In this document: positions 1-5,968 of the stretch, one piece after another
Layout of the letters: every line of letters starts with the position of its first letter
How positions within the stretch are numbered: position 1 is the stretch's first letter
Source of the DNA: Modestobacter sp. DSM 44400
GTDB lineage: Bacteria; Actinomycetota; Actinomycetes; Mycobacteriales; Geodermatophilaceae
Direction of reading: 5' to 3'
Assembly: GCF_900107175.1 (NCBI RefSeq)
Contig: NZ_FNOZ01000010.1
Span: 62,001 to 126,000 of the forward strand
DNA: 64,000 nt
The notes under the pieces: model-generated
Told to the model about the DNA's origin: nothing
Database searches by the model: none
Seen by the model: the letters and a program-made list of their open reading frames with translations, nothing else
Position numbers and translations under genes: made by a program

Positions 1-1120
1 GACGCCCGGCGATCAGGGTGACCCGGTCGCCGACGGCCTCGTGGAGCTGGAGGCGCAGCAGCGGGCGGACCTGCAGCACCGTGTCGCCGTCCAGGGCGGC
101 GGCCGCGGCGGACTGCGCCAGCGGTGCCACCGGCTGCGGACGCACCTGGCCCCAGGTGCGGGCGCGCAGCCGGTCGGCCACGTCGGCCGGGTCGATCCGG
201 TCCAGCCACCGGTGCAGCCCGGCCAGCACCGCGGCGACGTCCTCGGCGGCGGCGTCCGGATCGGCCAGGTCCACGCCCAGCGGCAGTGAGCCGCGCAGCT
301 CCTCGTCCTGGGCGGCCAGGGTGCGCATCAGGTCCAGGGCGGACTCCACCGCTCCCCACCGGGTGACGGGATGGACGCCGACGGTCAGGTGGGCACTGAT
401 CCGGCCCAGCGCGACGGCGGAGTGCAGATAGCCGCGCGGGAGGTAGAGGGCGTCGCCGGGCCGCAGCACCGTGTCGATCACCGGCGGGCGCTCCGCGGCG
501 GCGGCGACCTCGTCCGGCCGGTCGGTCCAGGGCTGGCTGCGCAGCGGGTCGGGAAGCACCGGCTCGTGGATGGTCCAGTGCTTCTCCCCGGCCACCTGCA
601 GCACGAACACGTCATGCACGTCGTAGTGCGGGGAGAACCCGCGCGAGGACGGCGGGGTGATGTAGGCGTTGACCTGCGTGGGATGCCCGAGGTCGGCGGC
701 GAGCTGGCCGGCGAAGTCGATCAGCGGCGGCCAGAGCCGGTGCAGGCCCTGCAGGACCACGGTGCTGCCCTCGGCGAACAGCCGGAGCACCGCGTCGGAG
801 GAGACCTGGTCGGCGACCTCGGCACCGGCGCCCTGCGGGCTGGTGAAGCGCGAGGGGTCGACGACGGCGCCGTCCTTGGCGATGCGCAGGAACGGGGTGC
901 GCAGCCCGCGGGTGCTCAACAGCTCGTCGACCGCGTCGAGGGTGAGCAGGTCGGTGAAGGTGCCCCTCAGTTCCGCGGCGCTGGAGAGCAACGGCCGGCG
1001 CGACCAGTGCTCCGCGGCGAAGACCTGCGGGTCGACGCGGATGCAGCGACGCAGGGCCGGGCGGGCGCCGCCCTTCGGGGAGGACGGCGCCCGGTCCTGC
1101 GTGGTCGGGCTCGTCGTCAG
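1..1120 (-). CDS. JmjC/cupin-fold 2-oxoglutarate oxygenase-like protein (3' end off the window)
   Basis: The translation carries a cupin/JmjC core: an HYD metal-binding motif (His165, Asp167, within HYDVHD) in a stretch beginning NAYITPP, and a distal His233 in YLPRGYLHSAV. These would form the Fe(II) triad of the ribosomal-oxygenase-like (YcfD/MINA-type) cupins, which hydroxylate proteins, often ribosomal ones. The N-terminal part (EHWSRRPLL) also fits this family. About 373 codons are visible and the C-terminus lies outside the window. No ATG or GTG is in frame near the front. The best start is a CTG overlapping the TGA of the upstream acidic gene, so the two are probably translationally coupled. 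The substrate cannot be told from sequence. Confidence 0.75.
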   Translation of the reverse strand, partial: MTTSPTTQDRAPSSPKGGARPALRRCIRVDPQVFAAEHWSRRPLLSSAAELRGTFTDLLTLDAVDELLSTRGLRTPFLRIAKDGAVVDPSRFTSPQGAGAEVADQVSSDAVLRLFAEGSTVVLQGLHRLWPPLIDFAGQLAADLGHPTQVNAYITPPSSRGFSPHYDVHDVFVLQVAGEKHWTIHEPVLPDPLRSQPWTDRPDEVAAAAERPPVIDTVLRPGDALYLPRGYLHSAVALGRISAHLTVGVHPVTRWGAVESALDLMRTLAAQDEELRGSLPLGVDLADPDAAAEDVAAVLAGLHRWLDRIDPADVADRLRARTWGQVRPQPVAPLAQSAAAAALDGDTVLQVRPLLRLQLHEAVGDRVTLIAGR

Positions 1121-1359
1121 GCGGAACCGTCCGCGCCGCCGTCGTGCTGGCCGGCGGCACCGCTGTCGGCAGCACCCGAGTCGGCGGGGCCTTCGGTGCC
1201 GCCCTTGGCACCGCCGTCCGCACCGCCGTCGGCACCGGCGTCCGCGCCGCCGTCCGCGCCGGCGTCCGCACCGGCGTCGTGCTGGCCGGGCTTGCCCTCG
1301 CCGGCACCGGAGTCGGCCGGGCCCTCCGTGCTGGTCATGTCGTCGTCGTCGAGCGCCAT
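1117..1359 (-). CDS. small acidic, low-complexity protein (80 aa)
   Basis: The ORF opens MALDDDDMTSTEGPADSG and then runs through repeated Gly-Ala-Asp units (GADGGADAG type) with two GQHD motifs. It is highly acidic, has no cysteine and no membrane segment, and is probably disordered. The ATG is preceded by a good GGAG Shine-Dalgarno sequence at the right distance, and the stop codon overlaps the presumed start of the oxygenase gene downstream, which argues that it is really translated. I do not recognise a family. A role as an expression leader or as a partner of the oxygenase is only a guess. Confidence 0.6.
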   Translation of the reverse strand: MALDDDDMTSTEGPADSGAGEGKPGQHDAGADAGADGGADAGADGGADGGAKGGTEGPADSGAADSGAAGQHDGGADGSA

Positions 1360-1507
1360 GGCTTCTCCGATCGTCGTCCCTGCGGCCGCCGGACGGCGAC
1401 CACCCCGGCCTGTTCTACCGCGACGACCGACTCTGCACACCTGCGGACCGCGCGCCGGTGGACGGTACCCAGCGTTTCTCGTTGTGCGCGGGGGGTAGCG
1501 CCTGCGG

Positions 1508-2508
1508 GTGTCGACCTCGCTGGACGCCGGTGAACAGGGCCGGGTCCAGCGCCAGGACGCCGTCTCGCGCGCGGCCTCGTCGTTCGTGGATCTCCTCGAT
1601 GCCGGCTGGTCCCTCCCGCTGCCAGGCTCCGGCGCCACCCTGCAGCGGTGGCGGGCCCTCGCCGAGCTCGGAGAACGCGACCTGCCGCTGGCCCGGCTGG
1701 CCGAGGGCCACGCCGACGCCCTGGCCGTCCTGGCCGACCTGGGGTTGCCCGTCCTGCCCCCGGGCGCGCGGCTGGGCGTCTGGGCGGCCGAGCCGCCCGG
1801 TCCCGCGGTGGTCGCCACCGAGGGGTCCGGCGGCTGGCGCCTGGACGGCCCCAAGTGCTGGTGCTCCGGCGCGCGGGTGCTCACCGGGGCACTGGTGACC
1901 GCGCAGGCACCGGACGGCCGACGGCTGTCCTCGTCGACCTGACCGCCGACGGCGTGCGGCCGGACCCGGGGGTCTGGGTCAACCCGGGGATGGCCGGCAG
2001 CGACACCGCGGACGTGCAGTTCGCCGACGTCCCGGCGGTCCCGGTCGGCGGGCCGCGCGCCTACCTGGACCGTCCCGGCTTCCGGCACGGCGGGATCGGG
2101 GTTGCCGCGGTGTGGCTCGGCGGTGCCCGCGGCGTCGCCGGCACGCTCACCGACGCCGCCGCCCGGCGCGGGCCGGACCCGCTCCGCGACGCCGCCCTGG
2201 GCGCGGTCGACGTCGCCCTGCACGCCGCCGGGACGGCGTTGGAGGCAGCCGCCGCGGAGGTGGACGCCGACCCGGCGGACCGGGGCGGCCACGCGCAGCT
2301 GCGCGCCCAGCGGGTGCGGGCGCTGGTGGCCCGGACCGGCGAGGAGGTGCTCGCCGTCGTCGGCCGGGCGCTGGGTGCCGCGCCGCTGGCGCACGACCGG
2401 GCGCACGCCGAGCGGGTCGCCGACCTCACCGTCTACCTCCGGCAGCACCATGGGGAGCGGGACCTCGCGGGCCTGGGTGCCCTGGTCCGCGAGCAGGCCG
2501 CCCGGTGA
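1508..2508 (+). pseudogene. acyl-CoA dehydrogenase-like gene with a -1 frameshift
   Basis: The N-terminal part (from GTG at 1508) and the C-terminal part are in different frames but together give one acyl-CoA dehydrogenase-like protein of about 333 residues. The first frame ends at 1942 after APDGRRLSSST. The continuation reads TAVLVDLTADGV, then GMAGSDTADVQF and a helical C-terminal domain. The break is near 1919-1921, where one base is missing (GGCCGACGG; a CGG codon would restore the frame). Family members are FAD enzymes desaturating acyl-CoA or acyl-carrier thioesters. The usual catalytic Glu cannot be placed with confidence. The stop overlaps the GTG of the PIG-L gene, so this is the first cistron of a four-gene operon. 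It may be a decayed gene or a sequencing error. Confidence 0.7.
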
Positions 2509-3265
2509 GCGGGGAGGACCGGATCGCAGCGCCTGGCACCGAAGAGTCGCGCTGGGCCGACTGGTTGCCCGCCCAGGACTGGCCCCGCTGGACGCCGGAC
2601 CCCTCATGGCGGGAGGTCGCCGTTTGCGCCGCCCACCCCGACGACGAGGTCCTCGGCGCCGGCGGGGTGCTGGCGGGACTGGCCGCCGCGGGCGTCTCCG
2701 TGCACCTGGTCGCGGTCACCGACGGGGAGGCCAGCCACCCGGGCAGCACCGCAGTTATCCCCACGGGGCTCGCGGAGCTGCGGGTGCTGGAGACCGACCG
2801 GGCGCTGGCGGCCCTCGGGGTCCGGGCCCGGACGACGCGGCTGGGCCTGCCGGACTCCGGGCTGGGGCGCTGCACGGCCGAGCTCGCCGCGGCGCTCGGG
2901 CCCGCGATCGTCGGGGCGGACGTTGTCCTCTCGACCTGGACCGGCACGCCCACCCCGACCACGAGGCCGTCGGCCGGGCCGCGCTGACCGCAGCCGGGGC
3001 GCACCGGCTGCCGGTATGGCAGTTCCCGGTCTGGGCCTGGCACTGGGCGGTCCCCGACGACGACCGGGTGCCCTGGGGGCGGGTGCGCGCCGTGCCGCTC
3101 ACCCCCGCCGTCCGGGCGGCCAAGCGCGCCGCCGTGGACTGCTTCGGCACCCAGGTCCGGCCACTCGGCCCGCTGCCGGACGACCGGGCCGTGCTGCCGC
3201 CGGAGGTGCTGGCGCACTTCGACCGCGATTTCGAGGTGCTGCTGGACATGAGCGGGCCGGCATGA
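2505..3265 (+). pseudogene. PIG-L family N-acetylglucosaminyl deacetylase-like gene with a -1 frameshift
   Basis: The reading frame from GTG 2505 shows the PIG-L zinc motif AHPDDE at about residues 43-48 (after VAVCA) and continues to VVLSTW. The second zinc-site motif HPDH (in DRHAHPDHEAVG) follows in another frame, and that frame continues to FEVLLDMSGPA. One base is missing near 2940, where TGGACC would read TGGGACC. PIG-L enzymes are zinc-dependent and remove N-acetyl groups from GlcNAc-containing lipids or small molecules such as mycothiol precursors. Total length of about 253 residues is normal for the family. The gene starts inside the dehydrogenase stop (GTGA) and ends inside the methyltransferase start (ATGA). 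All catalytic motifs survive, so only the frameshift breaks it. Confidence 0.8.
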
Positions 3266-3876
3266 GCCTGGACGCCGGCTTCTTCGACGAGATGTACGCC
3301 GTCGCGGACGACCCCTGGTCGATGCGCACCCGCTGGTACGAACGCCGCAAGTACGACCTGTCGACGGCGGTGCTCCCACGGCGGCGCTACGGAGACGGGC
3401 TCGAGGTGGGTTGCTCGGTGGGGGAGCTGACGGCCCGGCTGGCCGGGCGCTGCGACCGGCTGACCGCCTGGGACACCAGCGCGACCGCGGTGGCCCGCGC
3501 GACGGCCCGGCTGGCGGGGCACCCCGGTGTGCGGGTGGAGCAGGCCAGCGCCCCGGCGACGCCGCTGCCGTCGGTCGACCTGCTGGTGCTCTCCGAGGTC
3601 CTCTACTACCTGGACCCCGGGGACCTGCAGACGCTGCTGGGCCAGGTGCGCACGGCGCTGCGGCCCGACGGCACCCTGCTCGCCGTGCACTGGCGGCACC
3701 CGGTGCCCGAGTACCCGCAGACCGGGGACGCCGTGCACGAGACGCTGCGCGCGGGACTGCCCTGGCCGCGGGTGGCCACCCACGAGGAGCCGGACCTGCT
3801 GCTGGACTGTTGGGTCGCGGCGCCTGCCGCCGACGTCCGGGCGGCCTCGGTCGCCGCGGCGGAGCAGCTGTGGTGA
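3262..3876 (+). CDS. NodS-like SAM-dependent methyltransferase
   Basis: A 204-residue class I methyltransferase. The SAM-binding motif I is LEVGCSVGEL at about residues 47-56, followed by an acidic AWDTS loop and the motif LLVLSEVLYYL. The N-terminal FDEMYA and WYERRKYDL segments are characteristic of the NodS family, whose founding member N-methylates the deacetylated amino sugar of Nod factors. Here it follows a PIG-L deacetylase and precedes a glycosyltransferase, so N-methylation of a free amino group on a sugar is a reasonable inference but unproven. The ATG overlaps the TGA of the preceding gene. The frame is intact, unlike its two upstream partners. Confidence 0.85.
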   Translation: MSLDAGFFDEMYAVADDPWSMRTRWYERRKYDLSTAVLPRRRYGDGLEVGCSVGELTARLAGRCDRLTAWDTSATAVARATARLAGHPGVRVEQASAPATPLPSVDLLVLSEVLYYLDPGDLQTLLGQVRTALRPDGTLLAVHWRHPVPEYPQTGDAVHETLRAGLPWPRVATHEEPDLLLDCWVAAPAADVRAASVAAAEQLW

Positions 3877-4640
3877 CCGGGGCGGCCGGGGGGCCGGCGC
3901 GGGGGGTCGACGTCCTCGGCGTCCTGGTCCCCGCCCGCGACGAGGAGGAGCTGCTCCCCGCCTGCCTGGCCGCGCTGGCCGTCGCGGCCGCGGCGCCCGG
4001 GCTGGCCGGGGTGACCGTCGAGGTCGTGGTGGTCGCCGACGGGTGCTGCGACGGCACCGTCGACCGGGCTGCCGAGGCCGGGGCGACCGTGCTGAGCCGG
4101 AGCGCTCCCGGAGGGAATGTGGGAGCCGCCCGGGACCTCGGGGCGCGGCACCTGCTCGGCCAGGCCGCCCGCGGCCGGGTGCCCGCCGATCGGGTGTGGC
4201 TGGCCAGCACCGACGCCGACAGCCGGGTGCCCGAGAACTGGCTGGTGCTGCACCGGACCGCTGCCGAGGCCGGGGTGCAGGCGCTGTTGGGCACGGTGGC
4301 CGTTGCCGACTGGTCGGGTCATCCGCCCGGGGGGGCCGCGGAGTTCGCCCGTACCTACGACGCCTGGCGGGCCGGCGGTGTGGACGCTGTCCACCCGCAC
4401 GTGCACGGGGCCAACCTCGGCGTGCGGGGAAGTGCCTATCTCGATGTCGGGGGCTTCCCGCCGGTGGGCGAGGACGAGGACCGCGCGCTGGTGACCGCCC
4501 TGGTGCGGTCGGGTGCGGGGGTGCTGCGCACCCCGGCCAGCCCGGTGCTGACCTCCAGCCGGCGGGTGGCCCGGGCGCGGGCCGGGTTCGGCCGCGACAT
4601 GAGGCTGCTGGCCGTCCGGCCCGCGGCCGTCGCCCGCTAA
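3873..4640 (+). CDS. family 2 glycosyltransferase
   Basis: A 255-residue GT-A fold glycosyltransferase: an N-terminal LVPARDEEELLPACL nucleotide-binding strand, then VVVVADGCCDGT, the metal-binding DAD (Asp114 and Asp116 in STDADSRVPENW), HGANLGVRGSAY and an acceptor-side GEDEDRALV motif. No transmembrane segment is visible, so it is probably cytosolic. The GTG start overlaps the methyltransferase TGA; a second GTG one codon earlier is equally possible. As the last gene of the operon it may transfer the sugar that PIG-L and the methyltransferase modify. Donor and acceptor cannot be read from the sequence. Confidence 0.85.
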   Translation: MTGAAGGPARGVDVLGVLVPARDEEELLPACLAALAVAAAAPGLAGVTVEVVVVADGCCDGTVDRAAEAGATVLSRSAPGGNVGAARDLGARHLLGQAARGRVPADRVWLASTDADSRVPENWLVLHRTAAEAGVQALLGTVAVADWSGHPPGGAAEFARTYDAWRAGGVDAVHPHVHGANLGVRGSAYLDVGGFPPVGEDEDRALVTALVRSGAGVLRTPASPVLTSSRRVARARAGFGRDMRLLAVRPAAVAR

Positions 4641-4690: not shown

Positions 4691-5968
4691 GTGTCCGAGC
4701 GGTCCGCCGGCTGCAGGGTGCTGCACGTCGACATGGACGCCTTCTTCGCCAGCGTCGAGGTCCGCCGGCACCCCGAGCTGGCCGGCACCCCGGTCATCGT
4801 GGGCGGGGCCGGCAACCGGGGGGTCGTCACCTCGGCCACCTACGAGGCGCGGCGCTACGGGGTGCACAGCGCCATGCCCACCGCCCGCGCGCTGCGGCTG
4901 TGCCCGACGGCGACCGTGCTGCCCGGGGACCTGGCCCTCTACAGCGAGGTGTCCCGCTCGGTGATGGCGCTGTTCCGGTCGATCACACCGCTGGTGGAGC
5001 CGTTGAGCCTGGACGAGGCGTTCCTCGACGTCTCCGGGTCCGGCCGCCGGCTGGGCGACCCGGTCGCGATCGGGGAGTACATCCGGGCCCGCGTCTTCGA
5101 CGAGCAGGGCATCACCTGCTCGGTCGGGGTGGCCGGCACTAAGTTCGTCGCCAAGCTCGCCTCCACCCGTTCCAAGCCCGACGGCCTGCTGGTGGTGCGC
5201 CCGGCCGAGGTCATGGAGTTCCTGCACCCGCTGCCGGTGAGCGCGCTGTGGGGAGTGGGTGCCAAGACCGAGGAGGTGCTGCTGCGGCTGGGGCTGCGCA
5301 CCGTCGGCGACCTGGCGCACGTGCCGGCGCGCACGCTGCAGCGGGCGGTCGGCCAGGCCGCCGGCACGCACCTGCACGAGCTGGCCTGGGGCCGCGACCC
5401 GCGCCGGGTGGTCCCCGACGAGCCGGACCGGTCGACCGGCGCGGAGGAGACCTTCGGCACCGACGTCGACGACCCCACGGTCATCCACCGCGAACTGCTG
5501 CACCTCGCGGAGCGGACGGCGGGCCGGCTGCGCTCCACCGGCCACCTGACCCGGACGGTGAGCATCAAGGTGCGTTTCGCCGATTTCACCACCATCACCC
5601 GGTCGCGCACGCTGAAGGTGCCGACCGACGTCGGCCAGGAGCTCTACGACACCGCCCGGGCGCTCTTCGACGCCCTCGGGCTGGACCGGGCGCGCATCCG
5701 GCTGGTCGGGGTCCGGGCGGAGGGGCTGGTGAAGGCCGACGCCACCGCCCGGCAGCTCGAGCTCGGTGCCCGGGAGCACGGCCGCCGGGACGCGGAGCTG
5801 GCCGCCGACCGGGCGGCGCGGCGGTTCGGTGCCGGTGCGGTGCGCCCGGCGACGTTGCTGACCCGCACGCAGGTCCCGAGGGCCGGCCGCCCGCCCGCGG
5901 CGGCGTTCCGGGAGCGCCCGGGAGACCCCGGGCAGGCCCGCGGACGGGCACCCCAGCCCGGCGGCTGA
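4691..5968 (+). CDS. dinB: DNA polymerase IV (Y-family translesion polymerase)
   Basis: A 425-residue Y-family polymerase. Catalytic acidic residues are visible in LHVDMDAFFASVE (Asp14) and SLDEAFLDVSGS (Asp108, Glu109). The helix-hairpin-helix segment LWGVGAKTEEVLLRLGLRTV and a little-finger domain (VSIKVRFADFTTITRSRTL) follow. The C-terminal tail beyond the little finger is Arg/Pro/Gly-rich and probably disordered. The enzyme extends past lesions with low fidelity. Start choice among clustered in-frame GTG codons (4682, 4688, 4691) is uncertain because the Shine-Dalgarno region is a run of G. Regulation by LexA is suggested by the SOS box just upstream. Confidence 0.93.
   Translation: MSERSAGCRVLHVDMDAFFASVEVRRHPELAGTPVIVGGAGNRGVVTSATYEARRYGVHSAMPTARALRLCPTATVLPGDLALYSEVSRSVMALFRSITPLVEPLSLDEAFLDVSGSGRRLGDPVAIGEYIRARVFDEQGITCSVGVAGTKFVAKLASTRSKPDGLLVVRPAEVMEFLHPLPVSALWGVGAKTEEVLLRLGLRTVGDLAHVPARTLQRAVGQAAGTHLHELAWGRDPRRVVPDEPDRSTGAEETFGTDVDDPTVIHRELLHLAERTAGRLRSTGHLTRTVSIKVRFADFTTITRSRTLKVPTDVGQELYDTARALFDALGLDRARIRLVGVRAEGLVKADATARQLELGAREHGRRDAELAADRAARRFGAGAVRPATLLTRTQVPRAGRPPAAAFRERPGDPGQARGRAPQPGG

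What the first reader, a model, noticed from the sequence alone, without database searches (positions are those of the whole stretch)
1508..4640. Uncharacterised four-gene sugar-modification operon: acyl-CoA dehydrogenase-like, PIG-L, NodS-like methyltransferase, GT2
The four genes overlap by 4-bp stop-start sites, so they form one unit. The three later enzymes are the classes that would deacetylate, N-methylate and transfer an amino sugar, and the methyltransferase is close in pattern to NodS of rhizobial Nod-factor synthesis. A dehydrogenase acting on an acyl chain fits the same idea. No NodC- or NodA-type gene is present, so this is not a Nod system, but it could make a small N-methylated amino-sugar conjugate. 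The first two genes are frameshifted in this strain.
Basis: partly seen in the sequence, partly recalled or inferred. Interest (0 to 1): 0.72.

Follow-up and report, generated by a model that had tools for sequence, protein, structure and literature searches.

The report
Stress-linked amino-sugar methylation operon, broken here
A four-enzyme operon, which probably builds a small N-methylated amino-sugar compound, is conserved from actinobacteria to Acinetobacter and tracks with drying and oxidative-stress genes there; its product has not been described in any paper I could find, and two of the four genes are broken in this strain.

Summary
Four genes overlap by 4 bp: an acyl-CoA-dehydrogenase-fold flavoprotein (ACD), a PIG-L deacetylase, a NodS-family methyltransferase (MT) and a small GT2. 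ACD and PIG-L are frameshifted; relatives carry intact copies.

The unit is real. In 23 genomes of the genus all four genes occur in the same six, between a JmjC gene and dinB. In 296 actinobacterial genomes ACD and MT co-occur in 28 of the 34 with either. Of 88 collected loci, 58 hold all four (Actinomycetota, Pseudomonadota, Deinococcota); 17 others have a CE4 (NodB-class) deacetylase instead of PIG-L, and none has both. PIG-L and MT share one reading frame in 15 loci. These patterns support de-N-acetylation followed by N-methylation.

Corrections: MT is not NodS (separate clade, far below the NodS cut-off). ACD is probably not an acyl dehydrogenase: its catalytic Glu is an invariant Gln, and by sequence it is closest to flavin monooxygenases such as DszC and nitrososynthases.

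New: in Acinetobacter baumannii the operon is co-regulated with otsAB and catalase (published RNA-seq); in Comamonas it lies between otsA and otsB. Best reading: a cytosolic stress-protectant pathway. Product and substrates are unproven.

The parts
1508..1942 (+). 5' fragment of the ACD-like flavoprotein gene (homology to intact orthologues runs to about 1927)
   Evidence: 66-67% identical to intact orthologue L081
1927..2508 (+). 3' fragment of the ACD-like gene in another frame, ending in the TGA that overlaps the PIG-L start
   Evidence: 76% identical to L081; carries the invariant YxRQ in place of the acyl-CoA-dehydrogenase EGT
2505..2987 (+). 5' fragment of the PIG-L deacetylase with the AHPDDE motif (homology runs to about 2933)
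   Evidence: (PF02585, 67.6 bits)
2948..3265 (+). 3' fragment of the PIG-L deacetylase in another frame, with the HPDH motif
   Evidence: 72% identical to L081; the frameshift separates the two halves of the active site
3262..3876 (+). intact NodS-family SAM methyltransferase, 204 aa
3873..4640 (+). intact GT2 glycosyltransferase, 255 aa, with DAD (114-116) and ED (202-203) motifs
4691..5968 (+). dinB (Y-family DNA polymerase): right border of the operon site, not part of the pathway
   Evidence: present at this site in genus members with and without the operon
1120..1361 (-). Asp/Gly-rich repeat peptide gene, left border of the operon site together with the JmjC gene (2 to about 1108, minus strand); not part of the pathway

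Best explanation
The operon encodes a soluble biosynthetic pathway for a small N-methylated amino-sugar conjugate made as a stress (drying/oxidative) protectant. Proposed steps: the GT2 transfers an N-acetylhexosamine from a nucleotide sugar to a small acceptor; PIG-L (or the analogous CE4 enzyme) removes the acetyl group; the NodS-family enzyme N-methylates the freed amine; the ACD-fold flavoprotein oxidises this amine or the acceptor, with reduced flavin from an NAD(P)H reductase that is encoded inside the CE4-type operons. Shown here: gene linkage, two interchangeable deacetylase types, shared PIG-L/MT reading frame, loss of the acyl-CoA-dehydrogenase base, stress-gene neighbours in several lineages. 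From a published table: co-regulation with otsAB and catalase in A. baumannii. Inferred: sugar, acceptor, order of steps, oxidation chemistry, protective role. In this strain the pathway is probably broken, because PIG-L and ACD are frameshifted. Confidence by layer: conserved functional unit about 0.97; deacetylation plus N-methylation of an amino sugar about 0.65; ACD-fold oxidase or monooxygenase rather than acyl dehydrogenase about 0.7; stress-protectant role about 0.5. The figure given is for the whole statement.
For: Linkage: all four genes in the same 6 of 23 genus genomes; ACD and MT together in 28 of 34 genomes with either, among 296 Actinomycetota; 58 of 88 collected loci have all four. 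Deacetylation: PIG-L catalytic motifs invariant; nearest solved structures are diacetylchitobiose deacetylases, LnmX, BshB, MshB; 17 loci carry CE4 instead of PIG-L, none both. Deacetylation and methylation as consecutive steps: one PIG-L/MT frame in 15 loci; independent GT2-NodS-like-CE4 fusions in Sulfitobacter and Mesorhizobium. Oxidation: ACAD Glu is Gln in 29/29; closest solved sequences 5gj7/5z8t, DszC, MsuC, nitrososynthases KijD3, ORF36, DnmZ (Foldseek); ferredoxin-reductase-type flavoprotein gene between MT and GT2 in 8/8 CE4-type loci examined. Stress role: A. baumannii ACICU_02432-02435 ('operon e') falls 31-62-fold together with otsA/otsB and catalase (PMC5660220 Table 2); operon between otsA and otsB in Comamonas, beside otsAB, catalase and an iron-containing redox enzyme on an Acinetobacter plasmid, near Ku/LigD in Bradyrhizobium, near catalase or PA2169-family genes in Cupriavidus and Sphingobium.
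Against: No substrate or product is known. GT2 matches only generic soluble GT-A enzymes with different donors. PIG-L and CE4 families also act on other amides. The fold alone does not separate the ACD from true acyl-CoA dehydrogenases (VIA Z 29-31 for both). Some relatives sit among other glycosyltransferases and UDP-galactopyranose mutase, which could mean a surface glycan. The A. baumannii expression data come from colistin-dependent mutants, not from a drying experiment. In the window's own genus no stress gene adjoins the operon except perhaps dinB.
Confidence: 0.5

Rival explanations
1. The operon modifies a cell-surface glycan or glycolipid: GT2 adds an amino sugar to a lipid-linked or outer-membrane acceptor, and deacetylation plus N-methylation makes it a cationic decoration.
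For: In Polymorphobacter, Deinococcus gobiensis, Sphingobium and Jiella other glycosyltransferases and/or UDP-galactopyranose mutase are neighbours; distant GT2 profile matches include ArnC-type transferases; the A. baumannii operon responds in colistin-dependent mutants.
Against: The commonest form is four enzymes with no transporter, flippase or polymerase annotated beside them; the GT2 is small (about 215-255 aa) and modelled as one globular GT-A domain; in A. baumannii it falls with cytosolic stress genes (otsAB, katE).
Confidence: 0.22
2. A Nod-factor-like signal: N-methylated, deacetylated chito-oligosaccharide made by a Nod-type pathway.
For: Same three enzyme classes as NodC/NodB/NodS, most literally in the CE4 form (GT2, CE4, NodS-family MT).
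Against: MT outside the NodS clade and far below the NodS cut-off; no NodA acyltransferase or NodIJ exporter seen; wide occurrence in non-symbionts; the GT2 is small, and NodC is not among the families it matches.
Confidence: 0.03
3. The unit is a thiol-cofactor-like pathway (mycothiol/bacillithiol type): GT plus MshB/BshB-type deacetylase, then decoration of the amine with methyl instead of cysteine.
For: PIG-L is nearest BshB1/MshB among NCBIfam models; the order GT then deacetylase is the same by established knowledge of MshA/MshB and BshA/BshB.
Against: All thiol-family cut-offs are missed by more than 100 bits; no ligase gene; GT2 rather than the GT4 of MshA/BshA.
Confidence: 0.1
4. The frameshifts are assembly errors and the operon is intact and working in this strain.
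For: Broken pieces are about as constrained as intact genes (dN/dS 0.32-0.44 against 0.28-0.41 in the same stretches of intact relatives); draft of 182 contigs.
Against: Neighbouring dinB is intact; 25 acyl-CoA-dehydrogenase domain matches in the same genome have no stop inside; 12 genus members lack the operon at this site and G002 keeps only a 63-residue ACD remnant there, so loss occurs in the genus.
Confidence: 0.35

Closest known systems
NodS (rhizobial Nod-factor N-methyltransferase, PDB 3OFJ/3OFK)
   Same: Same Pfam family PF05401, same SAM-methyltransferase family, linked to a GT2 and a de-N-acetylase
   Different: True NodS is a separate clade on a long branch (100/99); NCBIfam NodS cut-off missed (61.6 against 300); no nodA/nodC/nodU around
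PDB 4ISC, 'Methyltransferase' with no function named in the entry
   Same: Member of the operon MT family, 8.4e-63 to the profile, inside the operon clade
   Different: No function assigned in the entry; its genomic context was not examined
Class D flavin monooxygenases of acyl-CoA-dehydrogenase fold: DszC/TdsC, MsuC/SfnB, nitrososynthases KijD3, ORF36, DnmZ
   Same: Closest solved relatives by sequence of the ACD-like protein; nitrososynthases act on amino-sugar amines (established knowledge)
   Different: About 17-22% identity in structure alignments; shorter (about 330 aa); acyl-CoA dehydrogenases align equally well by fold; activity untested
PIG-L/LmbE deacetylases: diacetylchitobiose deacetylase, MshB, BshB
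   Same: AHPDDE and HPDH catalytic motifs, family above Pfam cut-off
   Different: Below every equivalog cut-off; substrate unknown
GT2-NodS-like-CE4 trifunctional proteins (Sulfitobacter, Mesorhizobium plasmids)
   Same: Same three catalytic classes on one chain
   Different: CE4 instead of PIG-L, no ACD; the MT domain is a different branch, nearer NodS in the tree
A. baumannii ACICU_02432-02435 ('operon e' in PMC5660220)
   Same: Same four enzyme classes in the same order, judged from the annotation (the Acinetobacter plasmid copy L066 was aligned directly)
   Different: No functional study found; only listed in a transcriptome table

Membership tests
NodS | Score above the NCBIfam NodS equivalog cut-off | tested here: not met
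   61.6 bits against 300
NodS | Falls in the clade of rhizobial NodS | tested here: not met
   Four rhizobial NodS form their own clade, 100/99, branch length 1.85; window MT groups with operon MTs
NodS | NodS-family SAM methyltransferase domain | tested here: met
   PF05401 58.9 bits, cut-off 24; NodS structure is a profile match at 8.1e-30
NodS | Genomic context of nodA/nodC/nodU | tested here: not met
   Controls have nodC, nodA or nodU adjoining; the window site has a JmjC gene and dinB
Acyl-CoA dehydrogenase | Catalytic Glu of the C-terminal EGT motif | tested here: not met
   Invariant Gln in 29 of 29 operon proteins, aligned with four canonical dehydrogenases of the same genome; the alternative Glu position of isovaleryl-CoA-type enzymes was not tested separately
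Acyl-CoA dehydrogenase | Fold | tested here: met
   Model pLDDT 92.9, VIA Z about 30 to dehydrogenases
Class D flavin monooxygenase | Closest sequence and fold relatives | tested here: inconclusive
   Top sequence matches include DszC, MsuC and nitrososynthases, but fold scores tie with dehydrogenases
Class D flavin monooxygenase | Oxygen-dependent hydroxylation with reduced flavin from a reductase | not testable with these tools
   A reductase-type gene lies in CE4-type operons only
PIG-L deacetylase | Family score and catalytic residues | tested here: met
   67.6 bits, cut-off 28.2; AHPDDE core and HxDH invariant in 20 aligned; in the window they lie on two frames
GT2 glycosyltransferase | Family score, DXD motif, GT-A fold | tested here: met
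Mycothiol/bacillithiol deacetylase (MshB/BshB) | Equivalog cut-offs | tested here: not met
   BshB1 64.8 against 182.5; MshB 27.6 against 224.35

The most novel reading that the evidence does not exclude
An undescribed, horizontally mobile metabolite pathway: two deacetylase-swapped operon types (PIG-L or CE4) make a new class of N-methylated, flavoenzyme-oxidised amino-sugar protectant, used from Deinococcus and actinobacteria to Acinetobacter as part of the dry-survival and oxidative-stress response alongside trehalose.
Probability: 0.35. Interest if true: 0.85.

Novelty: new variant of a known kind. Interest (0 to 1): 0.64.

Why it matters
Desiccation survival of bacteria, including hospital Acinetobacter, is explained by trehalose, hydrophilins, catalase and DtpC; a co-regulated small-molecule operon of unknown product in the same set would be a missing component, directly testable by gene removal and metabolomics. 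The replacement of PIG-L by a NodB-class deacetylase with the other enzymes kept points to the chemistry without biochemistry. It also suggests that the usual annotation is wrong: these 'acyl-CoA dehydrogenases' lack the catalytic base. The scatter across phyla and on plasmids suggests selection for it in many lineages, while this genus loses it repeatedly.

Tried and rejected
Nod system: rejected. Acyl-chain dehydrogenase: disfavoured on the catalytic residue; fold comparison alone could not decide. Decay by relaxed selection of the broken genes: no sign. GT2 donor from profile, NCBIfam and fold searches: no specific answer. N-terminal domain of the Deinococcus ACD: no Pfam, NCBIfam or PDB sequence match; it is homologous to a stand-alone protein in the Polymorphobacter cluster. 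Literature: eight searches combining the enzyme names with Nod, stress, trehalose or Acinetobacter terms led only to two incidental A. baumannii mentions of the four genes; a further search by locus tag and one on stress terms led to no description of the pathway. Only open-licence papers are held, so absence of a description is not proof. Gammaproteobacteria: only 1 of 229 sampled genomes has the MT, so it is rare there.

Full report
Observation. At 1508-4640 four genes run on the + strand with three 4-bp stop/start overlaps. They are an acyl-CoA-dehydrogenase-fold protein (ACD), a PIG-L deacetylase, a NodS-family methyltransferase (MT) and a GT2. ACD and PIG-L are each split over two frames; MT and GT2 are open. 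In PIG-L the split separates AHPDDE from HPDH, the two halves of the active site, so the pathway is probably not functional in this strain. Intact copies exist in relatives.

Is it a unit? Within the genus all four genes are in the same six genomes, G000, G001, G007, G016, G017 and G020; the only other hit above threshold is an ACD remnant in G002. The site is fixed: JmjC gene, repeat peptide, operon, dinB. Of the 13 genus members without the operon that were examined, 12 have the same flanks and no detectable operon gene, and G002 keeps a 63-residue ACD remnant beside dinB, so loss is common. Among 296 Actinomycetota genomes ACD is in 30, MT in 32 and both in 28. Of 88 loci collected, 58 carry ACD, PIG-L, MT and GT2; 17 carry ACD, CE4, MT and GT2. 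The loci were gathered mostly by MT similarity, so these are not frequencies in nature. Hosts include Cryobacterium, Cellulomonas, Oerskovia, Actinomadura, Nocardia and Gordonia and Deinococcus, Acinetobacter, Comamonas, Bradyrhizobium, Sphingobium and Kitasatospora plasmids. GT2 comes first in Williamsia, Nocardia and Gordonia.

Chemistry. PIG-L and MT share one stop-free frame in 15 loci. In Rubrobacter (L064), Solirubrobacter (L107) and further same-phylum genomes, mostly of one family (f32, Rubrobacteraceae by a matching contig length, inference), the PIG-L gene is replaced by a CE4 polysaccharide deacetylase, the NodB class; no locus has both. Unrelated fusions of GT2, NodS-like MT and CE4 exist in Sulfitobacter and Mesorhizobium. 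Two unrelated deacetylase families serving the same position is the best evidence that an N-acetyl amino sugar is deacetylated and then N-methylated. PIG-L's nearest solved relatives are diacetylchitobiose deacetylases, BshB and MshB.

The ACD. It is not found by PF00441 in its own genome, where 25 other domain matches are. The catalytic Glu of the EGT motif is an invariant Gln in 29 of 29 aligned members from three phyla and more. Closest solved sequences are 5gj7/5z8t, DszC, MsuC and the nitrososynthases KijD3, ORF36 and DnmZ; Foldseek ranks DszC and DnmZ first, but VIA Z-scores tie with true dehydrogenases. CE4-type operons carry a ferredoxin-reductase-type flavoprotein gene between MT and GT2 in 8 of 8 examined. 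An oxidase or monooxygenase acting on the amine or acceptor is therefore more likely than acyl-chain desaturation, without proof.

The methyltransferase. It is in Pfam NodS but scores 61.6 against the NodS cut-off of 300. In a 64-row tree the four rhizobial NodS form a 100/99 clade on a branch of 1.85, and the window MT lies with the operon proteins and PDB 4ISC.

Physiology. In A. baumannii, ACICU_02432-02435 are annotated as the same four enzymes (glycosyltransferase, methyltransferase, LmbE, acyl-CoA-dehydrogenase-related) and fall 31-62-fold with otsA/otsB, catalase and other genes in colistin-dependent mutants (PMC5660220, Table 2); the same set beside blsA is noted in PMC6240043. On an A. 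johnsonii plasmid the operon is near catalase, an iron-containing redox enzyme and otsAB; catalase KatE and the diiron-oxidase-like DtpC are desiccation factors in A. baumannii (PMC13232832; that the plasmid protein is a DtpC homologue is my reading of the annotation, not tested). In Comamonas it sits between otsA and otsB, in Bradyrhizobium near Ku/LigD, in Cupriavidus and Sphingobium near catalase or PA2169-family genes. This suggests a stress protectant; the evidence is association only.

Frameshifts. Both broken genes evolve much like their intact relatives (dN/dS 0.32-0.44 against 0.28-0.41), so the breaks are recent or are assembly errors. Neighbouring dinB and 25 acyl-CoA-dehydrogenase domain matches elsewhere in the genome show no stop inside, which favours real breaks without settling it.

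Verdict. A real, widespread, apparently uncharacterised operon; broken in this strain; amino-sugar N-methylation likely; not NodS and probably not an acyl dehydrogenase; linked to stress genes in several lineages.

Noticed in passing
window 2-1361, minus strand: JmjC_2 (ribosomal-oxygenase-like) gene preceded by a small Asp/Gly-rich peptide gene, MALDDDDMTSTEGPADSGAG...(GGAD)n...QHDGGADGSA; the repeat number varies strongly between genomes. The pair is found at this site in nearly all genus members checked, with or without the sugar operon. It looks like a hydroxylase with a repeat substrate, possibly RiPP-like.
   Followed up: partly
L072:4396-7476 and L076:4498-7410: Trifunctional GT2 / NodS-like methyltransferase / CE4 deacetylase proteins on Sulfitobacter and Mesorhizobium plasmids; their MT domains sit nearest NodS in the tree.
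   Followed up: partly
L062:1193-3532, L075:2896-5244, L069:2448-4820: Deinococcus ACD carries an extra N-terminal domain of about 400 aa without any family match, homologous to a stand-alone protein beside UDP-galactopyranose mutase in L106 (9552-10688); by eye it resembles a TIM-barrel glycosidase.
   Followed up: partly
L128-L133, L107, L150, between MT and GT2: CE4-type operons contain a ferredoxin-reductase-type (Pyr_redox_2) gene, a possible electron partner of the ACD-like enzyme.
   Followed up: partly
L057 and L033: The operon is also frameshifted in Cryobacterium breve ERMR7:08 (PIG-L/MT; open in C. breve TMT4-23) and in Blastococcus sp. TML/M2B (MT).
   Followed up: no
L115 (G002) 4126-4314: Only a 63-residue ACD remnant is left beside dinB at the operon's site.
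   Followed up: yes
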